Below, piece by piece: positions 2,084 through 48,260 of a stretch of 64,000 nt of DNA. The notes under the pieces are model-generated. The model was given only the letters and a program-made list of their open reading frames with translations, searched no databases and was not told where the DNA came from. Position 1 is the first letter of the stretch. Each line of letters begins with the position of its first letter. This DNA is from Planctomycetaceae bacterium (GTDB lineage Bacteria; Planctomycetota; Planctomycetia; Pirellulales; UBA1268), in assembly GCA_902629495.1 (NCBI GenBank), contig CACORA010000008.1, positions 7,265 through 71,264 on the forward strand, given 5' to 3'. The translations under genes were made by a program, and so were the position numbers.

Positions 2084-3697
2084 TTATGGTTTGGTTGAAT
2101 CAACCCAAGGCAATCGATCGAAGGAGTCTGTCAGGCGTGGATCGTCCGTTTCATTCATCACCTTCATAACACGACCACGCAAAGAACTCAGAACGGCGGC
2201 GTATGCTGTGTCAGCAGCACGATTGATTAGTTGATCAGGATCATTTCTTAAGTCATAGAGTTCTTCACTCGGGCGAGGCTCCATCGTCAGAGAGAAGAGT
2301 TCCTTATCGTGAGAACGTTCCCGCTGAGACATCATCCACGCCTTCGTAAGACTACCATCGAGATCACGATAAGCCGGTGTTGTTGACAAACCCATTTTGT
2401 ACAGCGCATCTGGGTTTGTAAGGAAGGCCGCGTCATACGGATCACCCATGGGCCATCGTTCCGACTTGAAGTTACGAATGTAGAGATGGTCTTTTGTGCG
2501 GATAGCACGCATCGGATAAGGCACATTTCCTGGACGGGCATTGTGGACGTGAAGCTCACGACCGATGATGACCGAGTCCCGCTCTGGATCAATCCAACCA
2601 CTCTTGTTGCTTGTGAGTTGAGGAAAGAAGGTGCGGCCATCCATACTGGCGGGCACTTTGCTTCCCGTGAGATCAAGCAGCGTTGGCCCCACATCCATGG
2701 TGCTTACAAAATCATTGACTCGTCTGCCAGCAAGAATCCCGTTAGGCCATCGGACCAGTAACGGCACACGCGTGGCGAGATCATAGCAGTTCGTCTTCCC
2801 ACGGGGGATTCCGGGAATGCCATGGTCACCAGAAAGAATGACCACGGTATTGTCGAGTTCACCAGAAGACTCTAACTCCTCAAGCATCGCTCCAAGCATC
2901 AGATCAAGGGCCAGCACTTCGCCCAGATAATCTGAAAAGTCGCGCCTCACATCATGGGCATCGGGAAGAAACTTTGGTAACAGTCCCTTGAGATCATCTG
3001 GTTCAATGCCCCAAAGATTCTTTCCCGAATCAGGAGTGTAAGGACGGTGGGTGTTGATGCTGCCAAAAACAAAGAAAAAGGGCTGCTCTTGAGATCTGCC
3101 AGCAAGCACCTGCTGTATTTCCTTGCGGCAGTTTTCAACAATCTCGTTGTGTCTCCGTTGCCTTTCAACCTGATCATCCGCCGTTCCAACATAGAGCCCA
3201 TACCGTTCATACCCAACTGTACCCAAAGACCGCACACTCTTCGGCCGTGCACTTGGATTGAAGGCGAATGTTTTTCGCGAACGCTGTGTGTAGTAACCAC
3301 TTTCGCGTATAAGATCACCGAACTTGGGCAGGTTCTTCATGGGATTATCGTACCCCTCCCAACTGCTTCCCTTACTATTCAGGAACGCATTAGAACCACA
3401 GTTCCAGAAGTAACGTCCCGTTGCCAGCGAAGCACGACACGGTGAACACGACGCAACGGGAACAAAGGCATTTTCGAAGACCACTCCTTCCCGACCAATC
3501 CGATCAATGTTGGGTGTTGAGATTACGTCGTTGAGCGAAGGCTTGTCTTTATCAGCATAGATACTGGCATAGCGGCCCCAATCATCTGCAAAGAAGAACA
3601 GAATATTGGGGCGTCTATTCTCCGCATGAGCGTAGCTACCAATGACCACACAAATGAAGATGAAGCCTCCCACCATGAAATTGAATTGGATTCTCAT
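2084..3697 (-). CDS. secreted sulfatase, iduronate-2-sulfatase-like
   Basis: A type I sulfatase that would remove sulfate esters from a polysaccharide outside the cytoplasm. I chose the ATG at 3697 because AAAGGA precedes it and a signal peptide (hydrophobic core ending near SYAHA) follows; the frame stays open upstream to 3751. The metal-binding FFADDWG segment is followed by CSPCRAS, the C-x-P-x-R motif whose first Cys (about residue 84 from this start) is converted to formylglycine. GDHG further down is the usual second metal site. The length of 537 residues is normal. No maturase gene is in the window. It converges with the PfkB kinase gene. Confidence 0.93.
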   Translation of the reverse strand: MRIQFNFMVGGFIFICVVIGSYAHAENRRPNILFFFADDWGRYASIYADKDKPSLNDVISTPNIDRIGREGVVFENAFVPVASCSPCRASLATGRYFWNCGSNAFLNSKGSSWEGYDNPMKNLPKFGDLIRESGYYTQRSRKTFAFNPSARPKSVRSLGTVGYERYGLYVGTADDQVERQRRHNEIVENCRKEIQQVLAGRSQEQPFFFVFGSINTHRPYTPDSGKNLWGIEPDDLKGLLPKFLPDAHDVRRDFSDYLGEVLALDLMLGAMLEELESSGELDNTVVILSGDHGIPGIPRGKTNCYDLATRVPLLVRWPNGILAGRRVNDFVSTMDVGPTLLDLTGSKVPASMDGRTFFPQLTSNKSGWIDPERDSVIIGRELHVHNARPGNVPYPMRAIRTKDHLYIRNFKSERWPMGDPYDAAFLTNPDALYKMGLSTTPAYRDLDGSLTKAWMMSQRERSHDKELFSLTMEPRPSEELYDLRNDPDQLINRAADTAYAAVLSSLRGRVMKVMNETDDPRLTDSFDRLPWVDSTKP

Positions 3698-4235
3698 CGT
3701 TGTCCTTTGGGCTATGATCTCGATAATTGAAAGAAGCACTTGGTAAAACACACTTGGGAGTTTAGGACCTCAGAATACCGTTGCAACTTGGAGCAGTATT
3801 CCATCATGTCGTGAAAAGCATGAGAAAAAGTAACTATCTATTCTCTCACATTCGACATTAGTGTTGATATGTGTTGTGTAGTCTCACTCATTTTGCTACA
3901 GGGACTATTGCCTGAGATCATTATTCACTGCGACTGAGACAGTTTGCACATATGGCTGCGGTAAGCGAATACCTCCTTATGCAGATCGACGTCTTCTACG
4001 ACGAGTGGAATTGCTTCATCGACCGTCTACATGGAAGGCTGCTTTGCTTCTTGCTTTTGCCCGAATGATCCAGGCAGAGAAAAAGGGAAATGTCATGGCC
4101 AATCGGAAGGGAAAAATCACCAACAACACAGGAATATCAAATCACATGAGACAGAAACAGTGTGTCAAAACTATTGTCAGCAATATGCGTTGAGGGGCAC
4201 GTTCTTCGAATCGTTTCTACGAAGGAGATGTACTG
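3698..4235. other. intergenic region, no convincing gene
   Basis: Some 540 bases separate the divergent sulfatase and Popeye-like genes. Short frames of 60-126 codons exist (for example from 4005 and 4031), but they have no recognisable domain and poor start sites. The end of the region carries the AAGGAG ribosome site for the gene at 4236. Promoters for both flanking genes presumably lie here; I could not assign them. Confidence 0.5.
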
Positions 4236-25043: not shown

Positions 25044-26252
25044 CTACTTGCTGACTTCATTTGCATCCCATACTACATGTGCGCCCTGAGATGGTCGACT
25101 TGTAAACCAATATGGCTTTATACCTGTCTCCTGTTGATACTGGATTGCCGTAGCCTCAGCTACAGACCTGAGATGATCCGTTGCCACAAGCGAGACCGTA
25201 CAGCCCCCAAAGCCAGCGCCTGTCATCCGAGAGCCATACACACCAGCTCGGCCACCTTTTTCTCTGGCAATACTCACAAGTAAATCTAACTCTGCACAAC
25301 TGACTTCGAAATTGTTGCTGAGGGAATCATGGCTGGCAAACATCAGATTACCAGCACATGCCCAATCACGAGAACGAACTGCTTCAGCCATCTTTTTCGT
25401 TCGGATGATTTCAGAAACGACATGACAAGCTCGTCTTGACTCAACGGCAGTTAACCGTTTAGATGCACTATCGATATCTTGCTGGGACACATTCCTCCAG
25501 GTCTGTCGGCCAATTTTTTGCAAGGCATCATGGCACTGCACACGTCGTGATGCATATTCCCCTTGGTTGAGCTCATGCCTGACATTACTGTGAATAATCA
25601 GTATGGAAACATCACGAGTATCAAATGGAACATGAGTGACTTTTTGTGTTTGGCAATCGATAAGCATTAGCTCATCCTCGACACCGAAAACACTACTAAA
25701 CTGATCCATAAAACCACATGGGACGCCTGCAAATTTATGCTCTGCTCTCTGACATAAAAGAGCCTTTTCAGTCAAATCACATTGGTATTTTGTCAGCCAT
25801 TCAAGTAACGTTGCAGTTGCTACTTCGAGAGCAGCACTGCTCGAGAGCCCTCCACCCATAGGAACTGTCGACTGAACAACTGCGTTGAGCGATGGTATTA
25901 TAAAACCACGATCAATCCATTCTTGAATGACTCCATTGACATAGTCTGTCCATTCGCCAGTTTTTGGAAGAAGACCCTCGGTCAATGAAAATCGTTTTGT
26001 TGATGCCACTTCACTACTATGAATAGTAATGGTCTGTGGCTTGAGCTCATCGGCACCAAGACCTGCTGCAATGAGTACATATCTTTCTAATGCGAGAGGT
26101 AAAACAAGTCCATCATTGTAATCAATGTGCTCACCAATCAGATTGACTCGACCTGGTGCCGCAACGATAACGGATGGCATGCAACCGAATTGCTGAGAGA
26201 AACTCTTCTCAATAAGGGAACGTTGTGCACGAAGTGATGTATCTACATTCAT
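25044..26252 (-). CDS. galK: galactokinase
   Basis: A 402-residue GHMP kinase phosphorylating galactose at C1, the entry step of the Leloir pathway. The galactokinase signature APGRVNLIGEHIDYN is at about 32-46. The ATP loop PMGGGLSSSAALE and the C-terminal SRMTGAGFGGC are intact. It is divergent from the sulfatase-hydrolase fusion, so a role in using galactose from sulfated galactans is plausible. No galT or galE is in view. Confidence 0.95.
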   Translation of the reverse strand: MNVDTSLRAQRSLIEKSFSQQFGCMPSVIVAAPGRVNLIGEHIDYNDGLVLPLALERYVLIAAGLGADELKPQTITIHSSEVASTKRFSLTEGLLPKTGEWTDYVNGVIQEWIDRGFIIPSLNAVVQSTVPMGGGLSSSAALEVATATLLEWLTKYQCDLTEKALLCQRAEHKFAGVPCGFMDQFSSVFGVEDELMLIDCQTQKVTHVPFDTRDVSILIIHSNVRHELNQGEYASRRVQCHDALQKIGRQTWRNVSQQDIDSASKRLTAVESRRACHVVSEIIRTKKMAEAVRSRDWACAGNLMFASHDSLSNNFEVSCAELDLLVSIAREKGGRAGVYGSRMTGAGFGGCTVSLVATDHLRSVAEATAIQYQQETGIKPYWFTSRPSQGAHVVWDANEVSK

Positions 26253-26452: not shown

Positions 26453-29400
26453 ATGCAAACAATACCACTCAATACGTATCGTCATGCACTCACTCTGTCA
26501 TCAGACACCGTGCACACCACATCAATAAGACAATACTCTCTACCTGTTCTTGTTTTTCTTTTTTCCTTTTGTCCATCCCTTTTTGCTGCAGATACGCATC
26601 ATTCCAAACAGCCAAATATCATCCTCATTCTTGCAGACGACCTTGGGTATTCTGATCTTGGTTGTTATGGCAGCGAGATCGAAACTCCCCGTCTGAACGA
26701 TCTCGCAGAGAACGGTATTCGTTTTACACAGATGTACAATGCCGCACGTTGCTGCCCTTCTCGCGCCAGCCTGCTCACCGGACTCTACCAACACCAGGTA
26801 GGCGTCGGTTTCATGGTCTATGGCAATTGGGGCACGGGCTATGAGGGTTCACTCAATGAAAACGGAGTCACGCTGGGCGAAGCGCTACGAGAAGCTGGCT
26901 ACACCACTTTTACGAGTGGCAAGTGGCATGCAGCAGCGCACCGCGATCCTCCAGACCACTCACTTCCTGAACACCGCGGATTCGATCGATCAACAGTCGT
27001 GCGCACCCATATCGATAGCTATTGGAAAGTGCTCAAAGGCTGTGACATTTACCAGGACGGCAAACTTCTGATTCCCGGAAATAACGACAATACCGAACTA
27101 AAGAACCCGTACCAACGAGATAAGGACTTTTATACGACTGACTACTTCACTGATGTCGCACTGGAATACATTGACGGCGCCGTCAATGACGGCAGCAAAC
27201 CATTTTTTCTGTACCTCACGTACAACGCACCACACTTCCCGCTTGAGGCTCCGGATGAAACGATCGCTAAATATGAGTCAAAGCTCAAAGATCCAGATTG
27301 GCTTGCTGAATTTGGCGACGGATGGGACCAAATGCGACAAAAAAAACTTGTACGCCAGAAAGCGATGGGTATCGTTCCGAAGGGACAGCAGCTGCCGGTG
27401 GTTCACTATTTCAACAACGTTCGTGTCATGCCCGGCATGCAGACCGGCACGAATCATAACCCGCTACCGAAATGGAAGGATCTACCCGAAGACGTCAAGT
27501 CGGAGGCCTGTTTTCGCCGTGCAATCTACAACGCTCAGATCGACAAGATGGACGAAAACATCGGACGTGTTATTGACAAGTTGAAAGCTGAAGGCGTCTA
27601 TGAAAACACACTGATATTGTTTGTTTCAGACAATGGCTGCTCGGGTGAGATGGGGGTTTTTGGAACCCACTTTGAGGGCGGAAAATACGACTACGCCGAG
27701 GGTGAATTCCGCAACGGCGAGTTCACCCGAAGAGGATCCAGAGAGGAAGGTGGATGGTCATACAAGGACAGGCTTGAGGGTGCCGGTTATAAAAAATCAA
27801 ATTACACGCAATGGAAGAAGTTCAGTGGCTGGGCCACGTCCCAAGGTCAGGGTTGGGCATCCTATTCAAACTCACCGTTTCGTAAGTTCAAAAAGTTTAC
27901 GCATGAGGGCGGCATTGCTTCTCCTCTGATTGTCCACTGGCCGAATGGTTTTCGTGCAAAAGGTGAGGTATCCAGCCAGCCCTATTTTCATTTCATCGAC
28001 GTCATGCCGACGTTGCTCGATGCTGCCGGTGCGACGTACCCAAAAAACTATAGCGGCAAGTCTCGACTCCCTCTCGAGGGAGTCAGCATGCTTCCTTATC
28101 TCCGAGAGCCCGATCGAGAAATGCACGATCGCCCGATCTTCTGGCAACATGAGACGCACGCTGCGGTTCGTCGCGGAAGATGGAAGCTAGTCACTGATAA
28201 TGATCGTACCGAGCCAATCGTTTGGGAGCTTTACGACCTTGCCGACGATCGCAGTGAAACAAACAATGTCTCCACTCAACACCCGAACATCGTCAATGAG
28301 TTATCCACCAAATGGAATCACTTTGCCAACCGAGCCAACGTCAAACCCTTTCCCGAAACACGAAATGGCCCTCGGGTCACTTCATCGGTTCAGGGTGCTA
28401 ACGTCGCCGCTTTGATCGACGGAATCGAGCCTACATCCTCTTCCGACTATCGCATTCCGCGTCTTAGCTTTCATCCAAAACGGGGAAGTCGAGAGTGGGT
28501 TCAATTCGAATATCCAGAACCCAGATCATTTGAGAATGCCGAAGTCTACTGGTTTGATGAGGCTCAGGCCGCGGCTTCTTTCCGTAACGAACGTCAGGAA
28601 ATCCTCCCCAGGTCCTGGAAAGTGCTGCACTGGACTAACGGGAAATGGAAGGGCGTCGGCCACACGGAGAAAAATCCAGGCATTCAGCGAGATCAATTTA
28701 ATAAGGTGACGTTCACCCAACCAATCACGACGTCGAAAATTCGCATTGAAATTGAACTCCACAAAGAGCTCTCTGGCGCAATGCTTGCCTGTCGCTTTGA
28801 TACTGACGATTCCTCCAAGCTATCCCAACCTATCAGTAACCCTGACAAAGAACTGATGCGGATAAAAAAGGAAGCACAACGAACCCTCAAAGCAGATGTG
28901 GACGAGTTCAACGGATATTCCCACCTCAACGGCAACCGCCCCGAGTTCGATGGCTGGTTAGAAAAATATAACAACGAGGAATTTCTGCAAAAAAACATCC
29001 CTAAGTTCTTATGCTCCCACGAAGATTACACCGAGGTCTTTAACTATCGCTGGTGGATGATCAGCAAGCATCTCAAGGAATGGGAGGAGGATGGTAATCG
29101 CTTTTTTGTGTTCACTGAGTTTCCTGGCTTTCCTGGCTGGGCTTCCAACAGTGGAGCTATCCCAGCTCCAGCTGGCCACCAGTTTTATGATCTTCGGTGG
29201 ATGCGGGATCCGAAATATCTGAAGTCGTATGCGGAGTATTGGCTTGCAGGACCTCCATCCCACAAGATGCAGCATCAGAACAATACCTGGCTTTCCACGC
29301 TACCACGACCCCAGAGCCATCACTACACCAGCTGGATGATCGACGCTTCCGAAGCCATGCTCAAAATTCATCCTGATGCACAGTGGCGAGATCGACTGCT

Positions 29401-30844
29401 GCCTGCAATGGAGCGTCACCAGAAGATCTGGGATCTCATCTTCCAAGTGAAAGCTCCAGGGAAAACCACGGACGGCCTCTATAAGTGTCTCGACATGTAC
29501 GACGCTAATGAGTTCACCATCTCCACGACACTGGCTCTGATTGCATCGGAAGGTGCTTTCTCTCGCTATACGGCTGAGATCAATCAGGAAGAACCCTACA
29601 AGGGGCAGGAACGCTGGCGTCGTTATTTTACAGATGGCAAAGGATGGCAAGCAGCCTTTATCGACGGCTTGAAGAATGATCCGCTTGTCTATCCGCAGCC
29701 ATTCGATCTCGAAAACTACAACACCATTCCTCAACCATTCGGAGGCAATCACGACTGGTATATCGACAGGAATGGAGAACGGAAGACCAAGCGGCCGAAC
29801 AGCTATCCAAATTGTTTTACAGTCCGCCCGTCACTCAATTGTTATATGTATGGGAACTATGCTTCCCTCGGCAGACTCTACGATCAACAGGCCCAAGCAG
29901 TTCAGGGCGGCAAGGCAAGCGCAAGAGCCAAGCAGTACTCCGAGCGAGCTCGACGGCTTCAACAGCAGATCATCCGAGCCCTATGGCATCACCCAACGAA
30001 GAACGATAAGCAACTGTTTTACAGCAAGCGAGGCGCTATCGACGATCCCTTCTTCTATTCTCGTATTGCCGGTGACAACCTGCATACAGGAAACGTGATC
30101 GATCAACTCAGCATCATTCGAGAGACCGTCGGCTACACGCCTTGGTACTTCAATCTGTTGCCTACGAAGGATGACCAGTTCGATAGTGCCTGGAAACAGT
30201 TCAACGACGAAATGGGGTTCAAACAACCCTTCGGTATGTCAACGGCCGAGTATCGCCATGATTTTTTCAACGAAATGTCCTACGGCTGGAACGGACGTGG
30301 CTGGCCCTTTCAGAACTCTATCGTCTACAAAGCCTATGCCAACTATCTGCGGAACTACAAAGCGACACGAGATGAGATTAACGATCAGGATCGCCAATTG
30401 CTCTATGATCACATGACGCAATATGTCGAACTCCATGGCCGTCGCCGGACAATTGGCGAGTGGTATCTACCCCGAACTGGTGGATACCGAATGCCTGGTG
30501 GTGGAGAAGTTGTTCAAAGCTTGCCTGCGATGGGCAAAGGATTTGGTGATGTTCAGGATTACTTTCACTCGACCTTTCCGGATATGCTCATCGAAGATCT
30601 TGTTGGCTTTCAAAGCAGCCATGACGACAGTTTTGAAATTCATCCTCTCCTGCCAAACAAAGAATGGACATTCTTTTACCTTGGGGATCTCCGATATCAT
30701 GGCTGTGATATCGATATTCTGTGGAAAGACGATTGGTCTGTGACAACCCCTGGCAAACAAAGCAAACTCTTTGTCTGGGTTAATGGGAAACGGGTTGCGG
30801 AAAGCGATGACCTCAATAGCCCTCTTAGGCTATCACTTCATTGA
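26453..30844 (+). CDS. arylsulfatase fused to a sugar-binding-like domain and a six-hairpin glycoside hydrolase
   Basis: A 1463-residue secreted protein. Residues 1-46 are a long signal peptide (hydrophobic core, then LFAAD). Residues 53-640 are a full sulfatase: ILADDLGYSDLG metal site, ARCCPSRAS with Cys100 as the formylglycine precursor, and VSDNGCSG. Residues 645-775 form a discoidin-like beta domain (NVAALIDGIEP, VYWFDEA, FNKVTF) of the type found attached to GH127-family proteins. Residues 800-1400 form an alpha-barrel resembling MGH1/GH63-like hydrolases (YGWNGRGWPFQNS near 1277). It likely desulfates and cleaves the same glycan. The reading frame is uninterrupted across the junctions. 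Confidence 0.9.
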   Translation: MQTIPLNTYRHALTLSSDTVHTTSIRQYSLPVLVFLFSFCPSLFAADTHHSKQPNIILILADDLGYSDLGCYGSEIETPRLNDLAENGIRFTQMYNAARCCPSRASLLTGLYQHQVGVGFMVYGNWGTGYEGSLNENGVTLGEALREAGYTTFTSGKWHAAAHRDPPDHSLPEHRGFDRSTVVRTHIDSYWKVLKGCDIYQDGKLLIPGNNDNTELKNPYQRDKDFYTTDYFTDVALEYIDGAVNDGSKPFFLYLTYNAPHFPLEAPDETIAKYESKLKDPDWLAEFGDGWDQMRQKKLVRQKAMGIVPKGQQLPVVHYFNNVRVMPGMQTGTNHNPLPKWKDLPEDVKSEACFRRAIYNAQIDKMDENIGRVIDKLKAEGVYENTLILFVSDNGCSGEMGVFGTHFEGGKYDYAEGEFRNGEFTRRGSREEGGWSYKDRLEGAGYKKSNYTQWKKFSGWATSQGQGWASYSNSPFRKFKKFTHEGGIASPLIVHWPNGFRAKGEVSSQPYFHFIDVMPTLLDAAGATYPKNYSGKSRLPLEGVSMLPYLREPDREMHDRPIFWQHETHAAVRRGRWKLVTDNDRTEPIVWELYDLADDRSETNNVSTQHPNIVNELSTKWNHFANRANVKPFPETRNGPRVTSSVQGANVAALIDGIEPTSSSDYRIPRLSFHPKRGSREWVQFEYPEPRSFENAEVYWFDEAQAAASFRNERQEILPRSWKVLHWTNGKWKGVGHTEKNPGIQRDQFNKVTFTQPITTSKIRIEIELHKELSGAMLACRFDTDDSSKLSQPISNPDKELMRIKKEAQRTLKADVDEFNGYSHLNGNRPEFDGWLEKYNNEEFLQKNIPKFLCSHEDYTEVFNYRWWMISKHLKEWEEDGNRFFVFTEFPGFPGWASNSGAIPAPAGHQFYDLRWMRDPKYLKSYAEYWLAGPPSHKMQHQNNTWLSTLPRPQSHHYTSWMIDASEAMLKIHPDAQWRDRLLPAMERHQKIWDLIFQVKAPGKTTDGLYKCLDMYDANEFTISTTLALIASEGAFSRYTAEINQEEPYKGQERWRRYFTDGKGWQAAFIDGLKNDPLVYPQPFDLENYNTIPQPFGGNHDWYIDRNGERKTKRPNSYPNCFTVRPSLNCYMYGNYASLGRLYDQQAQAVQGGKASARAKQYSERARRLQQQIIRALWHHPTKNDKQLFYSKRGAIDDPFFYSRIAGDNLHTGNVIDQLSIIRETVGYTPWYFNLLPTKDDQFDSAWKQFNDEMGFKQPFGMSTAEYRHDFFNEMSYGWNGRGWPFQNSIVYKAYANYLRNYKATRDEINDQDRQLLYDHMTQYVELHGRRRTIGEWYLPRTGGYRMPGGGEVVQSLPAMGKGFGDVQDYFHSTFPDMLIEDLVGFQSSHDDSFEIHPLLPNKEWTFFYLGDLRYHGCDIDILWKDDWSVTTPGKQSKLFVWVNGKRVAESDDLNSPLRLSLH

Positions 30845-30882: not shown

Positions 30883-33084
30883 ATGCCCCCTCTCAAATTG
30901 CCACAGAACTTCTGCCTAACGACACTTTTTTTTATTCTGTGCTGCACCTGTCACCTAACAGGCACCACAAAACTATTCGCACATCAGAAGCCTGCATTCA
31001 CGGACTATTGCAAGCGGCTCGAACACGATATTCAGGGACGTAAACATGGTTTCCTTGCAGGCAATCTCACCTATTATGTTGGTGGATTTCACGCCAGTTG
31101 GAACCCTATCGAAGATGAAACTATTGGCCTCACCCATCCTTTCTATCACGACCTTCGAGCTCGTGGTTCTGCTCTCTTGAGCAGTGAGATCACTGGCACA
31201 GAAAATACTGGCATTGGCAATGATTATCTCGGCTGGGAATTTTACAAAGACACACGAGTCCTCTATGGAAGTGTTATTGCGAATGGGAAAACCTATCCAA
31301 CACCTCAACCACAAATCATGCATTGGCGACCAGATCAGATCATCTGTGAGTATGAACTTGACGGCATTCGGATTCGAGAGCAAAAGTTTATAAATAGTAA
31401 CGATGCAATAGCCTCCATCATTACATCCTCTAAGCCGATTGTTCTCAGATTTGAGGGGCACAGTCTTTACACACGAAACAGCGTGTCATCCAAAGCAACT
31501 GCCAGACTGGATGATTCAAAAACATCTATCCTCATTACTGAGGCTGGCACTATGAAATCACGCCCAGACCCAAATGGTCCTGAGCGTATTGGGCCTTCTC
31601 TCTACACTGGCATGACGACCGCGATCAGTATCTCATCGGATATTTCAACAAGCCTCAAGTTTGAGACCGATTCCGACGGAGTACTGCATTACACCTTTTC
31701 AGTTCCTTGTGATTCAACAGGCGCTGTTGTCTCCTGGTCAATGAGTGATGATGCAGCTGAAGCCTTAAGAGCAGGCCGTAATATCATCACGCATCACAAG
31801 AAAGATCTCGCAGAGAAAACAGCGTTTATTAATCAACTTCTCAATGATGAAATTCCCTGGTTTCGTTGTCCGGACCAAAAAATTGTTGATGTTTATTACT
31901 ATCTCTGGTCACTCTACCTTTTGTATTCCATTGATGTTGGTAGCGGTTGGGAAATGGAGAATCACACACAAACCGCTGTTAATAATTTCCTTGGTCTTCA
32001 CCGTTATGATGCAACCTTCCAGATAAAAGTTGGTGCCTGGACAACTGATAAAGCTCGCTATGCCTATGGCAATGTCCTGACATGGAAGCACCTCACCGAG
32101 AATGACCGGTTCCGTGAATTGCCTAATGGCATCCGCATGCTCTCTGATAATAAAGGTATCTCATGGCACAGCGGTGCATACGGTGGTGAAACATCCGAAC
32201 ACGTGTTAGGAGCCTGGCAGATTTATGAGCATACTGGCGATGTTGAGTTTCTACGCGCAAGTTATGAGGGTCATTTTGATAAGCTTTTTCGCAAGCGCCT
32301 TACAACCTTTGCGATGAATGAATTTGAAGTCATCGACACCCTTATTCGCATTGCGCACATTCTCGGACACGACGATGATAAAGAGCATTGGCAATCGTTG
32401 ATACGTCGTGACCCTGAACATATTCAACACATGTTTGATCAACGGTGGGAAGTCAATAACGTCAAAAACTTTTTTAATGCTCCAAAGAGCGGGTTGCTTG
32501 GAACAAACTCTTTTTGGGCTATGCGTTCACCCTTCTTTCCCAAAATATACGCTGAGAAAATGGTGCAGCACTGGGCAGTGGATCATGAAAAGGGTTTCTT
32601 TGGTGCGTTTTTCCCACTCGCCATGTCGAAGCAATCCATGAAAACATTCAAGACCAAAGTTGATCAGTCTTTTGGTTACACACCAGACACTGCCTATTTC
32701 ATGCTCGACGGAATGTTTTGTCAGGGACTTCCAGTCGCACCAGAACTGACACTCAATCACCTTACTCACTACAACTGGCACCCTGAGTGGAACATTCCTG
32801 TTGCACCAGAAGCGTACCAACGTGATGGCTCACTTTTTGGAGATCAATATTCGAATTTTAATGCAGGAAAAATTCTTCTTTACCTTGAAGGCCTCGGCGG
32901 CCTCACGTATTCCATTCCAGACAATACGTTATCTGTTCGTCCTGCATTGCCAAAAGAATGGAAATGGATGGAAATACGTCTTCCTATCAAGGATCAGTGG
33001 ACAACAATTCGCTACGAAAAAGATAGGACAGAGGTTGTTGGATCACCACTCCCATGGGAGGTCATGTCAGCAAGTTCAAAATAA
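30883..33084 (+). CDS. secreted six-hairpin glycosidase-like protein
   Basis: About 733 residues from the ATG at 30883, giving a signal peptide (LTTLFFILCCTCHL). The frame extends to a TTG at 30841 that overlaps the previous stop; neither start has a clear ribosome site. An N-terminal beta region is followed from about residue 300 by an alpha/alpha-barrel with WEMENHTQTAVNNF (near 356) and SWHSGAYGGETSEHVLG (near 426). This resembles the (alpha/alpha)6 glycosidases of the MGH1/GH-15-like clans. It directly follows the sulfatase fusion, so it probably acts on the same polysaccharide. Exact family and linkage unknown. Confidence 0.82.
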   Translation: MPPLKLPQNFCLTTLFFILCCTCHLTGTTKLFAHQKPAFTDYCKRLEHDIQGRKHGFLAGNLTYYVGGFHASWNPIEDETIGLTHPFYHDLRARGSALLSSEITGTENTGIGNDYLGWEFYKDTRVLYGSVIANGKTYPTPQPQIMHWRPDQIICEYELDGIRIREQKFINSNDAIASIITSSKPIVLRFEGHSLYTRNSVSSKATARLDDSKTSILITEAGTMKSRPDPNGPERIGPSLYTGMTTAISISSDISTSLKFETDSDGVLHYTFSVPCDSTGAVVSWSMSDDAAEALRAGRNIITHHKKDLAEKTAFINQLLNDEIPWFRCPDQKIVDVYYYLWSLYLLYSIDVGSGWEMENHTQTAVNNFLGLHRYDATFQIKVGAWTTDKARYAYGNVLTWKHLTENDRFRELPNGIRMLSDNKGISWHSGAYGGETSEHVLGAWQIYEHTGDVEFLRASYEGHFDKLFRKRLTTFAMNEFEVIDTLIRIAHILGHDDDKEHWQSLIRRDPEHIQHMFDQRWEVNNVKNFFNAPKSGLLGTNSFWAMRSPFFPKIYAEKMVQHWAVDHEKGFFGAFFPLAMSKQSMKTFKTKVDQSFGYTPDTAYFMLDGMFCQGLPVAPELTLNHLTHYNWHPEWNIPVAPEAYQRDGSLFGDQYSNFNAGKILLYLEGLGGLTYSIPDNTLSVRPALPKEWKWMEIRLPIKDQWTTIRYEKDRTEVVGSPLPWEVMSASSK

Positions 33085-46403: not shown

Positions 46404-48260
46404 CTACCTGACTTTCCGCATCCTCGCGAAGTTTGGCCATGAGGGCAATCGCAACTCAAAGCGACCTATTTTTACAGGGAAAGCCCAAGACGCTGGCACA
46501 GCATGGGGCCAGAAAACAACCATTGCCTCACCAATGAGGAGATGGCGATCAACATGGTGACCATCCATCCATAGACGACTGTCCTTGCTTGCTGCAGAAT
46601 TATCGCCGAGCATAAAAAACTGACCTTGTTCAAGCGGAAAATCCAAACGCTCTTTCTCATAAAATTCTCCGAGACGCACGCCCATGACAGTTGTGAGGTA
46701 ATACACATCCCGGAGCACCCGCATCCCCGCAACTGTCACGTGAGCACCGCTCGACATGATTCCAGCTGGTGATACATCACTGAGTGTTGCATTCCCCGGT
46801 TCGACAAGAGTTTCCACAGGCTTAGACCGCAGAGCATCCTGAATATCCTGTTCAAGATCCACAGATGTTCCAATATCAATCCTATTTCCGTCGACATAAA
46901 GCGATAGCTGATCATCAATATTTGCAAAAAGGACGGTCCACGTTCCTTCTCCTTTTATTGATGATCGAACCATTGAAGCATCGGTTGGCGACTGTCCTGC
47001 ACGTACAACTGCAACTTCTCCATTCGAGAAATCAAATGTACATCGATGTGCCTCACCTGCTTCAATAAGCTCAAGCGTTATCTGCCCAGTCTCGGAATGA
47101 CTCGTTACTACTGTCTCCACCGCAAGATCACTCACCCAATGGGGACGGCTTGGCAATGCGTTATAAGGCTGAAAATCTGTAATCAGAGAAGGCTGTGCCA
47201 TTCCATCCACTGACTCTCCATCACGAACGCTTTCCCACTGTTCTGCTGTAGGCACCATGTGCCGAAAACGCATGGTGGCTGTCTGCTCTCCCTGACAATC
47301 CACTGTATAGGACCGTCCATCATCATCGGCTTGCCATCGCTTTTTGTCTTTCGGAAGAAACCAATCTGACCATGCTGAAGGCCATCCAGACTGAATAAGT
47401 TTTTCAGGAATATGATCAGCGTCATGAACGCACTGAAGCATTGCCACAAGTTTGTCATCAGGCTTCCTTGCAATGCGCGGCGCGGCACCTTCTCGGCTTG
47501 TCCAAATATCTCCTGCTGCAATTGACACTGTTTCACCCGGAAGCCCAATTAAGCGTTTTATGTAATTGACTTTGGCATCTTCTGGATAACGAAATACCAC
47601 AACATCCCAGCGATCGGGATCTGAAAAATCATAGGCCACCTTATTCACAAGAATCCGATCACCATTGAACGACGGATACCGTGGATTGTATGCAAGTCCC
47701 TCGCCCTGTTCCTCTAAAAACTCTACAGGCAATCCACAGTTTGGACATGTTCCAACAGCTACAAGTTTACTCTCGAGTCGACTGCGCCGTTGCGATATGG
47801 GGCCTCCCTCTCGCTCTAGATCGGTCAGCCTTCTTCGGGCATCGTCTTTCTCACGAGGTGAACTCCGTGAACTATCAACTATTGATCTGAGTCGCTCTCC
47901 TTCTTGCTCAAGTCTCGATAGTTCCATGCGCAAGCCCTGCGACTGATCATCCTCTTCCGCGCTACAGCCAACACGATACGCCACTCCACAAGAATCACAC
48001 ACCAGATCCTTATGCCGCCCCATGAGCGTTGGGGCCATTGATCCTGTTGGTATGACGAATGCCTCTGCTTCAAAAGCCCGAAATAACAATGCCATCGCAA
48101 ATGCCACAACAATCGACTCAATTGTTTCACGACCGAAGACAAGAGGTTGTCGCACGCGATCACCAGACTGTGGTCCGCTTTCATTATTCACTAACGCTGT
48201 TTTTTCTTTACCAAGACCACGACTATTTGCAGCATCAGGTTGACCAGGCTTTGATGTCAT
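46404..48260 (-). CDS. lepB: signal peptidase I with zinc-ribbon and beta-sandwich insertions
   Basis: A 618-residue enzyme, far above the usual 200-320. The membrane helix is at about 45-62. Catalytic Ser74 is in PTGSMAPT and Lys235 in YIKRLIGLPGE; the C-terminal box is GDNSAASKDSR. Two insertions are visible. Residues 85-176 hold CDSCG and CPNCG (a zinc-ribbon pair) separated by a coiled coil at about 107-166. Residues 250-540 hold a beta-rich domain with a LamG-like DDQLSLYVDGNRID stretch. It removes signal peptides of Sec substrates. lptB follows directly. Confidence 0.92.
   Translation of the reverse strand: MTSKPGQPDAANSRGLGKEKTALVNNESGPQSGDRVRQPLVFGRETIESIVVAFAMALLFRAFEAEAFVIPTGSMAPTLMGRHKDLVCDSCGVAYRVGCSAEEDDQSQGLRMELSRLEQEGERLRSIVDSSRSSPREKDDARRRLTDLEREGGPISQRRSRLESKLVAVGTCPNCGLPVEFLEEQGEGLAYNPRYPSFNGDRILVNKVAYDFSDPDRWDVVVFRYPEDAKVNYIKRLIGLPGETVSIAAGDIWTSREGAAPRIARKPDDKLVAMLQCVHDADHIPEKLIQSGWPSAWSDWFLPKDKKRWQADDDGRSYTVDCQGEQTATMRFRHMVPTAEQWESVRDGESVDGMAQPSLITDFQPYNALPSRPHWVSDLAVETVVTSHSETGQITLELIEAGEAHRCTFDFSNGEVAVVRAGQSPTDASMVRSSIKGEGTWTVLFANIDDQLSLYVDGNRIDIGTSVDLEQDIQDALRSKPVETLVEPGNATLSDVSPAGIMSSGAHVTVAGMRVLRDVYYLTTVMGVRLGEFYEKERLDFPLEQGQFFMLGDNSAASKDSRLWMDGHHVDRHLLIGEAMVVFWPHAVPASWAFPVKIGRFELRLPSWPNFARMRKVR

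What the first reader, a model, noticed from the sequence alone, without database searches (positions are those of the whole stretch)
26453..30844. One polypeptide joins an intact sulfatase, a sugar-binding-like domain and a six-hairpin hydrolase
The frame shows a complete sulfatase with its Cys-x-Pro-x-Arg motif (Cys100), a discoidin-like domain (about 645-775), and an alpha-barrel like MGH1/GH63 enzymes (about 800-1400). Sulfatases and hydrolases usually sit on separate genes in polysaccharide loci. A fusion suggests coupled desulfation and cleavage of one glycan.
Basis: partly seen in the sequence, partly recalled or inferred. Interest (0 to 1): 0.72.

Follow-up and report, generated by a model that had tools for sequence, protein, structure and literature searches.

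The report
Fused sulfatase and GH142-like sugar hydrolase
A marine-type bacterium encodes one secreted protein that probably both strips sulfate from an algal-type sugar chain and cuts a sugar off it; joining a sulfatase to a sugar-cutting enzyme is already known in such bacteria, but this particular pairing seems undescribed.

The parts
26453..26590 (+). N-terminal stretch with a hydrophobic segment like a Sec signal peptide (residues 1-46)
   Evidence: read by eye; not aligned among relatives
26603..28363 (+). S1-type sulfatase domain, residues 51-637
   Evidence: Pfam PF00884 and PF16347; best solved match 7all, E 2.2e-86
26750..26752 (+). Cys100, predicted formylglycine precursor in RCCPSR
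   Evidence: invariant in 16 of 16; role from family knowledge
28370..28807 (+). beta-sandwich domain, residues 640-785, that also precedes the barrel in stand-alone relatives
   Evidence: model; stand-alone relatives match from 641-642; F5/8C below cut-off
28850..30622 (+). GH142-like (alpha/alpha)6 barrel, residues 800-1390
   Evidence: Pfam PF22422; profile and fold match to BT_1020
29117..29119 (+). Glu889, aligned with Glu694 of GH142 BT_1020 and Glu383 of GH121 HypBA2
   Evidence: alignments; 99 of 99; numbers from PMC7263609
29501..29503 (+). Asp1017, candidate general acid
   Evidence: aligned with an Asp of BT_1020; 99 of 99; role inferred
30458..30460 (+). Glu1336, candidate general base, aligned with Glu713 of HypBA2
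   Evidence: alignment; 99 of 99; role inferred
30623..30841 (+). C-terminal beta domain, residues 1391-1463
   Evidence: model strands; aligned with the C-terminal end of BT_1020
30883..33084 (+). downstream gene, 733 aa from the ATG shared with relatives; unclassified six-hairpin-like protein, probable partner
25044..26252 (-). galactokinase gene, divergent neighbour
   Evidence: TIGR00131 318.6 bits, cut-off 226.65

Best explanation
A secreted bifunctional enzyme. Shown here: a sulfatase domain and a GH142-like (alpha/alpha)6 glycosidase domain with its own beta-sandwich sit in one conserved polypeptide, with active-site residues of both kept. Inferred: Cys100 is matured to formylglycine; the sulfatase removes an O-sulfate, most likely at O3 of a galactose-configured sugar as its S1_4-type relative does; the barrel then cuts a glycosidic bond at the chain end with Asp1017 as acid and Glu1336 as base. 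The released sugar is most likely galactose or a sugar of galacto/arabino configuration from a sulfated arabinogalactan-type algal glycan; galactose would be mutarotated and phosphorylated by the linked galactokinase, and the downstream six-hairpin-like protein would act on another linkage of the same glycan. The tether keeps both steps at one place on the chain. Within the stated confidence: bifunctional about 0.8, galactose as the released sugar about 0.45.
Against: No activity data. Four of 15 carriers (G001, G002, G003, G005) have no galactokinase over the cut-off, and the neighbourhoods of fused genes with PSCyt2/DUF1501 (6 of 13 fused loci) show none, so galactose is not supported there. 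The characterised relatives GH142 and GH121 act on beta-L-arabinofuranosides (PMC7263609, passages). Stand-alone hydrolases exist without a close sulfatase next to them (L014, L015, L020), so the sulfatase is not always needed. The window's own surroundings are not a classical polysaccharide locus.
Confidence: 0.6

Rival explanations
1. The barrel is a true beta-L-arabinofuranosidase (the known GH142 activity) and the sulfatase desulfates arabinose or galactose of a sulfated arabinogalactan; galactokinase serves the galactose part only.
For: Nearest relatives are GH142 and GH121, both beta-L-Araf enzymes (PMC7263609, passages). Related sulfatases are fused to GH127, also a beta-L-Araf family: P0039 in reverse order and P0078; P0039 pairs with the L022 sulfatase next to the fused clade in the sulfatase tree (91/87).
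Against: No L-arabinose isomerase in 15 of 15 carriers, though its background is low, 12 of 119 and 7 of 117, so about one was expected; other arabinose routes were not searched. Galactokinase linkage.
Confidence: 0.28
2. The two domains are merely tethered for co-secretion and act on different glycans or different sugars without order.
For: Sulfatases of this kind are fused to many partners: GH43 (13), GH127 (2), GH2 (2), pectate-lyase-like (1), apiosidase-like (1) among 120 listed; dual sulfatases also exist (P0031, P0032; by eye).
Against: The pair has stayed together across lineages with congruent distances.
Confidence: 0.15
3. The barrel is no hydrolase in practice but a phosphorylase or a binding module.
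Against: The three acids of GH142/GH121 are kept; GH142 and GH121 score far above GH94.
Confidence: 0.04
4. Assembly or annotation artefact joining two genes.
For: No genome is held for the window, and its last 70-85 residues resemble another lineage.
Against: 13 of 22 loci fused, one in a 7.1 Mb chromosome record; P0001 is full length with 16 scattered differences.
Confidence: 0.01

Closest known systems
GH142 beta-L-arabinofuranosidase BT_1020 (5mqr)
   Different: BT_1020 is listed as a sialidase-named, two-part protein, its other domain being GH33 (recalled); no sulfatase. Substrate of the window's barrel unknown.
GH121 beta-L-arabinobiosidase HypBA2 (6m5a)
   Different: About 18% identity over the aligned part; releases a disaccharide; retaining (PMC7263609, passages).
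S1_4 sulfatase BT4683 (7all; identity of the entry recalled)
   Same: Best solved match of the sulfatase part; Arg/Glu pair for galactose O2 conserved.
   Different: BT4683 is a separate gene acting on mucin (PMC10154612, passages).
Published sulfatase-hydrolase fusions of Planctomycetes and Kiritimatiellales
   Same: Sulfatase and glycoside hydrolase in one polypeptide (PMC4807772, PMC6388578; passages).
   Different: Named partners there are GH10, GH29, GH32 (and an amylopullulanase annotation); no GH142-like partner is named in the passages seen.
GH78 alpha-L-rhamnosidase/sulfatase (molecule name of 6hr5)
   Same: By its name a sulfatase joined to an (alpha/alpha)6 glycosidase family.
   Different: GH78 rather than GH142; sulfatase match weak (E 3.3e-16); ulvan context recalled.

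Membership tests
S1 sulfatases | Cys-x-Pro-x-Arg type motif for formylglycine | tested here: met
   C100, P102, R104 in 16 of 16; Pfam 189.5 bits, cut-off 25
S1 sulfatases | metal and sulfate-pocket residues | tested here: met
   D62, D63, K157, H159, H261, D393, N394, K480 in 16 of 16; roles recalled
S1 sulfatases | formylglycine actually formed, sulfate released | not testable with these tools
   needs protein
SulfAtlas S1_4 | assignment by SulfAtlas models; Arg/Glu contact to galactose O2 | tested here: inconclusive
   R99 and E399 kept and nearest solved match is of this kind, but no SulfAtlas model was available
GH142 | sequence and fold similarity to BT_1020 over the catalytic domain | tested here: met
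GH142 | conserved pocket Glu694 | tested here: met
   aligned with Glu889, 99 of 99
GH142 | assignment by CAZy's own model; beta-L-arabinofuranosidase activity | not testable with these tools
   no CAZy/dbCAN library held; no assay. I therefore say GH142-like
GH121 | Glu383, Asp515, Glu713 | tested here: inconclusive
   Glu383 and Glu713 have counterparts by the printed alignment; Asp515 lies outside the aligned stretches; overall match weaker than GH142
Pfam MGH1-like_GH (PF22422) | score over the curated cut-off | tested here: met
   154.7 bits against 27
F5/8 type C (discoidin, CBM32-like) | score over the curated cut-off | tested here: not met
   17.4 bits against 28.2; among the 16 full-length relatives the precomputed column lists it for P0010 only
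Sulfatase-glycoside hydrolase fusion proteins | both domains in one frame in independent genomes | tested here: met

The most novel reading that the evidence does not exclude
The barrel founds a distinct GH142-related specificity that releases galactose (perhaps a furanose form) only after 3-O-desulfation by the fused sulfatase: a two-step enzyme for a sulfated arabinogalactan-type glycan, spread between Planctomycetes and Verrucomicrobia with a second, unclassified six-hairpin hydrolase and galactokinase, and split again in some lineages.
Probability: 0.25. Interest if true: 0.6.

Novelty: new variant of a known kind. Interest (0 to 1): 0.42.

Why it matters
Marine Planctomycetes carry many sulfatases, most without a known substrate (established knowledge). 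Here a sulfatase is tied to a glycosidase with an intact active site and, in several lineages, to galactokinase, which turns it into a direct, testable prediction of the sulfated sugar being attacked. Fused and split versions in related genomes, and even in one genome, are natural controls for what the fusion does. It also singles out an unclassified hydrolase-like family found in 13 of 15 carrier genomes.

Tried and rejected
Assembly join: rejected. MGH1/GH63 as closest family: rejected in favour of GH142. CBM32 call for 645-775: below cut-off. L-arabinose isomerase as a discriminator: absent in 15 of 15 carriers, but background is only 12 of 119 and 7 of 117, so it says little. First structure model (17 similar sequences; mean pLDDT 62.7, pTM 0.63) was poor and replaced by one from 99 chosen sequences (79.1, 0.84); both give BT_1020 then HypBA2 first. 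The downstream protein has no convincing solved relative: 4 chance-level rows alone, none as a profile. Plasmid collection: no match. Literature: nine searches; six papers were read in passages only (PMC6388578, PMC4807772, PMC7263609, PMC10154612, PMC8406133; for PMC10154612 also a fruitless look for residue numbers), that is five papers; all others were seen as listings. Mostly open-licence papers are held, so absence from print is not shown.

Limits of the counts: one search lists 120 of 336 hits, 120 of 171, 120 of 729 (and only the best candidates were scored). Alignment A4 left out fused proteins and five fragments. In one search, 114 candidates were taken, 53 passed a length filter, 33 were used; several outgroup branches are long. 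In one search the 13 kb limit was set after seeing the data, and which kin to drop was my choice (G013; then also G004 and G007). The background for the downstream gene comes from one family only, while the 15 carriers span several groups.

Full report
The frame. ORF 26453-30844 encodes 1463 aa without an internal stop. Pfam finds a sulfatase (54-527, 1.2e-55) with its C-terminal subdomain, PF22422 (902-1351, 6.5e-45) and, below cut-off, F5/8 type C (650-769). The first 46 residues hold a hydrophobic stretch like a signal peptide (by eye).

Is it real? A search of 5.8 billion proteins gave 336 hits, 120 listed. Of these 120, 16 (P0001-P0016) are full length with both domains, one (P0017) is a shorter protein with both, and 11 are the hydrolase without the sulfatase, one of them with an extra lectin-like domain. 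A scan of species genomes gave 22 loci: 13 fused (L001-L013, L008 cut by its contig end), 7 hydrolase-only matching from residue 641-642 (L014-L020, L020 cut by its contig end) and 2 with separate genes (L021, L022). P0001 has the window's length with 16 scattered differences. An assembly join is excluded. The gene is rare: 1 of 392 and 1 of 387 genomes in even samples of two phyla, in both cases the centre genome itself; 5 of 241 (one a partial match, four already known) and 5 of 117 genomes in two families. The window's protein is 80-83% identical to loci titled Planctomycetes, Rubripirellula, Blastopirellula and Rhodopirellula (L001-L003, L005) and 76-81% to loci titled Verrucomicrobia groups (L006-L008, L013), yet only 71-72% to three other Planctomycetes loci (L009-L011); this suggests lateral transfer, which I did not test against housekeeping genes.

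Sulfatase. The best solved match is 7all (2.2e-86), then 1hdh, an arylsulfatase. Fourteen checked positions, among them Cys100, Asp62, Asp63, Lys157, His159, His261, Asp393, Asn394 and Lys480, are invariant in 16 of 16 (roles recalled). Arg99 and Glu399 align with Arg72 and Glu335 of 7all (counted on the alignment). The review PMC10154612 (passages) says that BT4683, an endo-acting S1_4 sulfatase for 3-O-sulfated galactose, touches O2 of galactose by a Glu and an N-terminal Arg. That 7all is BT4683 and that these are the residues is recalled.

History. In the hydrolase tree (43 rows) the fused rows need three changes of state (two forced by well-supported branches), and eight stand-alone rows, mostly Akkermansiaceae where a title is known, join fused P0013 at 100/98. 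In the sulfatase tree (33 rows) the 16 fused rows and three truncated ones (P0017, P0018, P0023) form one clade at 100/100. Domain distances correlate, r 0.87, 0 of 2000 permutations as high. One fusion followed by loss of the sulfatase part is the simplest reading; separate fusions are not excluded, and P0024's place is weak. One assembly carries a fused copy (L004) and a stand-alone copy (L015).

Neighbours. Two kinds of surroundings: PSCyt2 and DUF1501 genes downstream (L001, L002, L004, L006, L007, L013; 6 of 13 fused loci), or a homologue of the downstream ORF (L009-L012, L014-L019, L021; 11 of 22 loci, as in the window). Loci differ in length and several are cut. Galactokinase is in 5 of 22 loci and next to the gene in the window; aldose 1-epimerase in 5 of 22. 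In whole genomes 11 of 15 carriers have galactokinase over the cut-off; G001, G002, G003 and G005 do not (G003 has a weak match). In 5 of the 11 it lies within 13 kb of the hydrolase gene on the same contig: 0.11 expected, tail 4e-8 for 5 of 11, 1e-6 for 4 of 10 without one close kin, 4e-7 for 4 of 8 with more kin removed. L-arabinose isomerase is absent from 15 of 15 against 12 of 119 and 7 of 117 in two family samples: about one would be expected, so the lack is not telling.

Downstream ORF. From the ATG at 30883 it is 733 aa. It has at least 729 relatives (capped), a Pfam GH65 C-terminal match in 12 of 16 aligned members and a weak six-hairpin rhamnosidase match in 7 of 16, and no convincing solved relative. 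It occurs in 13 of 15 carrier genomes against 14 of 119 in a family sample that includes two carriers.

Mosaic. At sites that separate ten close fused relatives from P0014, residues 1-1378 of the window follow the close relatives at 148 sites and P0014 at 6, while residues 1393-1463 follow P0014 at 6 of 6; identity of 1381-1463 is 80% to P0014 and 54-71% to the other 14. DNA similarity to L009-L011 runs on through the downstream gene, that to L001 stops at the end of the fusion gene. A recombination that brought in the 3' end with the downstream gene fits; P0001 agrees with it at full length.

Known context. PMC4807772 (passages) estimates 34 and 21 multi-domain sulfatase genes in two Planctomycetes, most often with glycoside hydrolase and hypothetical domains. 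PMC6388578 (passages) reports fusions with GH10, GH32 and GH29. In one search, besides the 17 with PF22422, 19 of 120 listed proteins join a sulfatase to GH43 (13), GH127 (2), GH2 (2), a pectate-lyase-like (1) or an apiosidase-like (1) domain; six of the 19 were rescanned. PMC8406133 (passages) describes an arabinogalactan of the green alga Codium that is sulfated on galactose and arabinose, the kind of substrate I have in mind. No paper on the present pairing came up.

Verdict. Real, conserved, probably bifunctional; a new variant of a known kind with an open but testable substrate.

Noticed in passing
window 30587-30628: Recombination-like breakpoint near the 3' end of the fusion gene: 148 against 6 informative sites before residue 1379, 0 against 6 after 1392; the last part and the downstream gene resemble an L009-L011 type lineage.
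   Followed up: partly
window 30883-33084 (+): Unclassified six-hairpin-like protein of 733 aa, at least 729 relatives, in 13 of 15 carrier genomes; possibly a glycosidase family without a name.
   Followed up: partly
P0039, P0078: Related sulfatases fused to GH127 (another beta-L-arabinofuranosidase family), in P0039 with the hydrolase first, in P0078 with the sulfatase first: a possibly convergent pairing.
   Followed up: partly
P0031, P0032: Two sulfatases in one protein, joined by a domain that looks like the beta-sandwich of the finding (by eye).
   Followed up: no
L022:1-18665: Lentisphaeria contig with four GH142-like genes in a row and six sulfatase-like genes; the first sulfatase, 51% identical to the fused one, follows the nearest hydrolase after 12 bases.
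   Followed up: partly
L004:10001-14320 and L015:9848-12451: Fused and stand-alone copies in one assembly.
   Followed up: no
L012:16638-20813, L014:10555-14712, L015:17073-21230: Large lamin-tail/CotH-domain proteins near the hydrolase, galactokinase or the downstream-type gene; role unknown.
   Followed up: no
window 2084-3751 (-): A second, ordinary sulfatase gene of 555 aa.
   Followed up: no
window 46404-48260 (-): Signal peptidase S26 matches in three stretches of one 618-aa protein.
   Followed up: no
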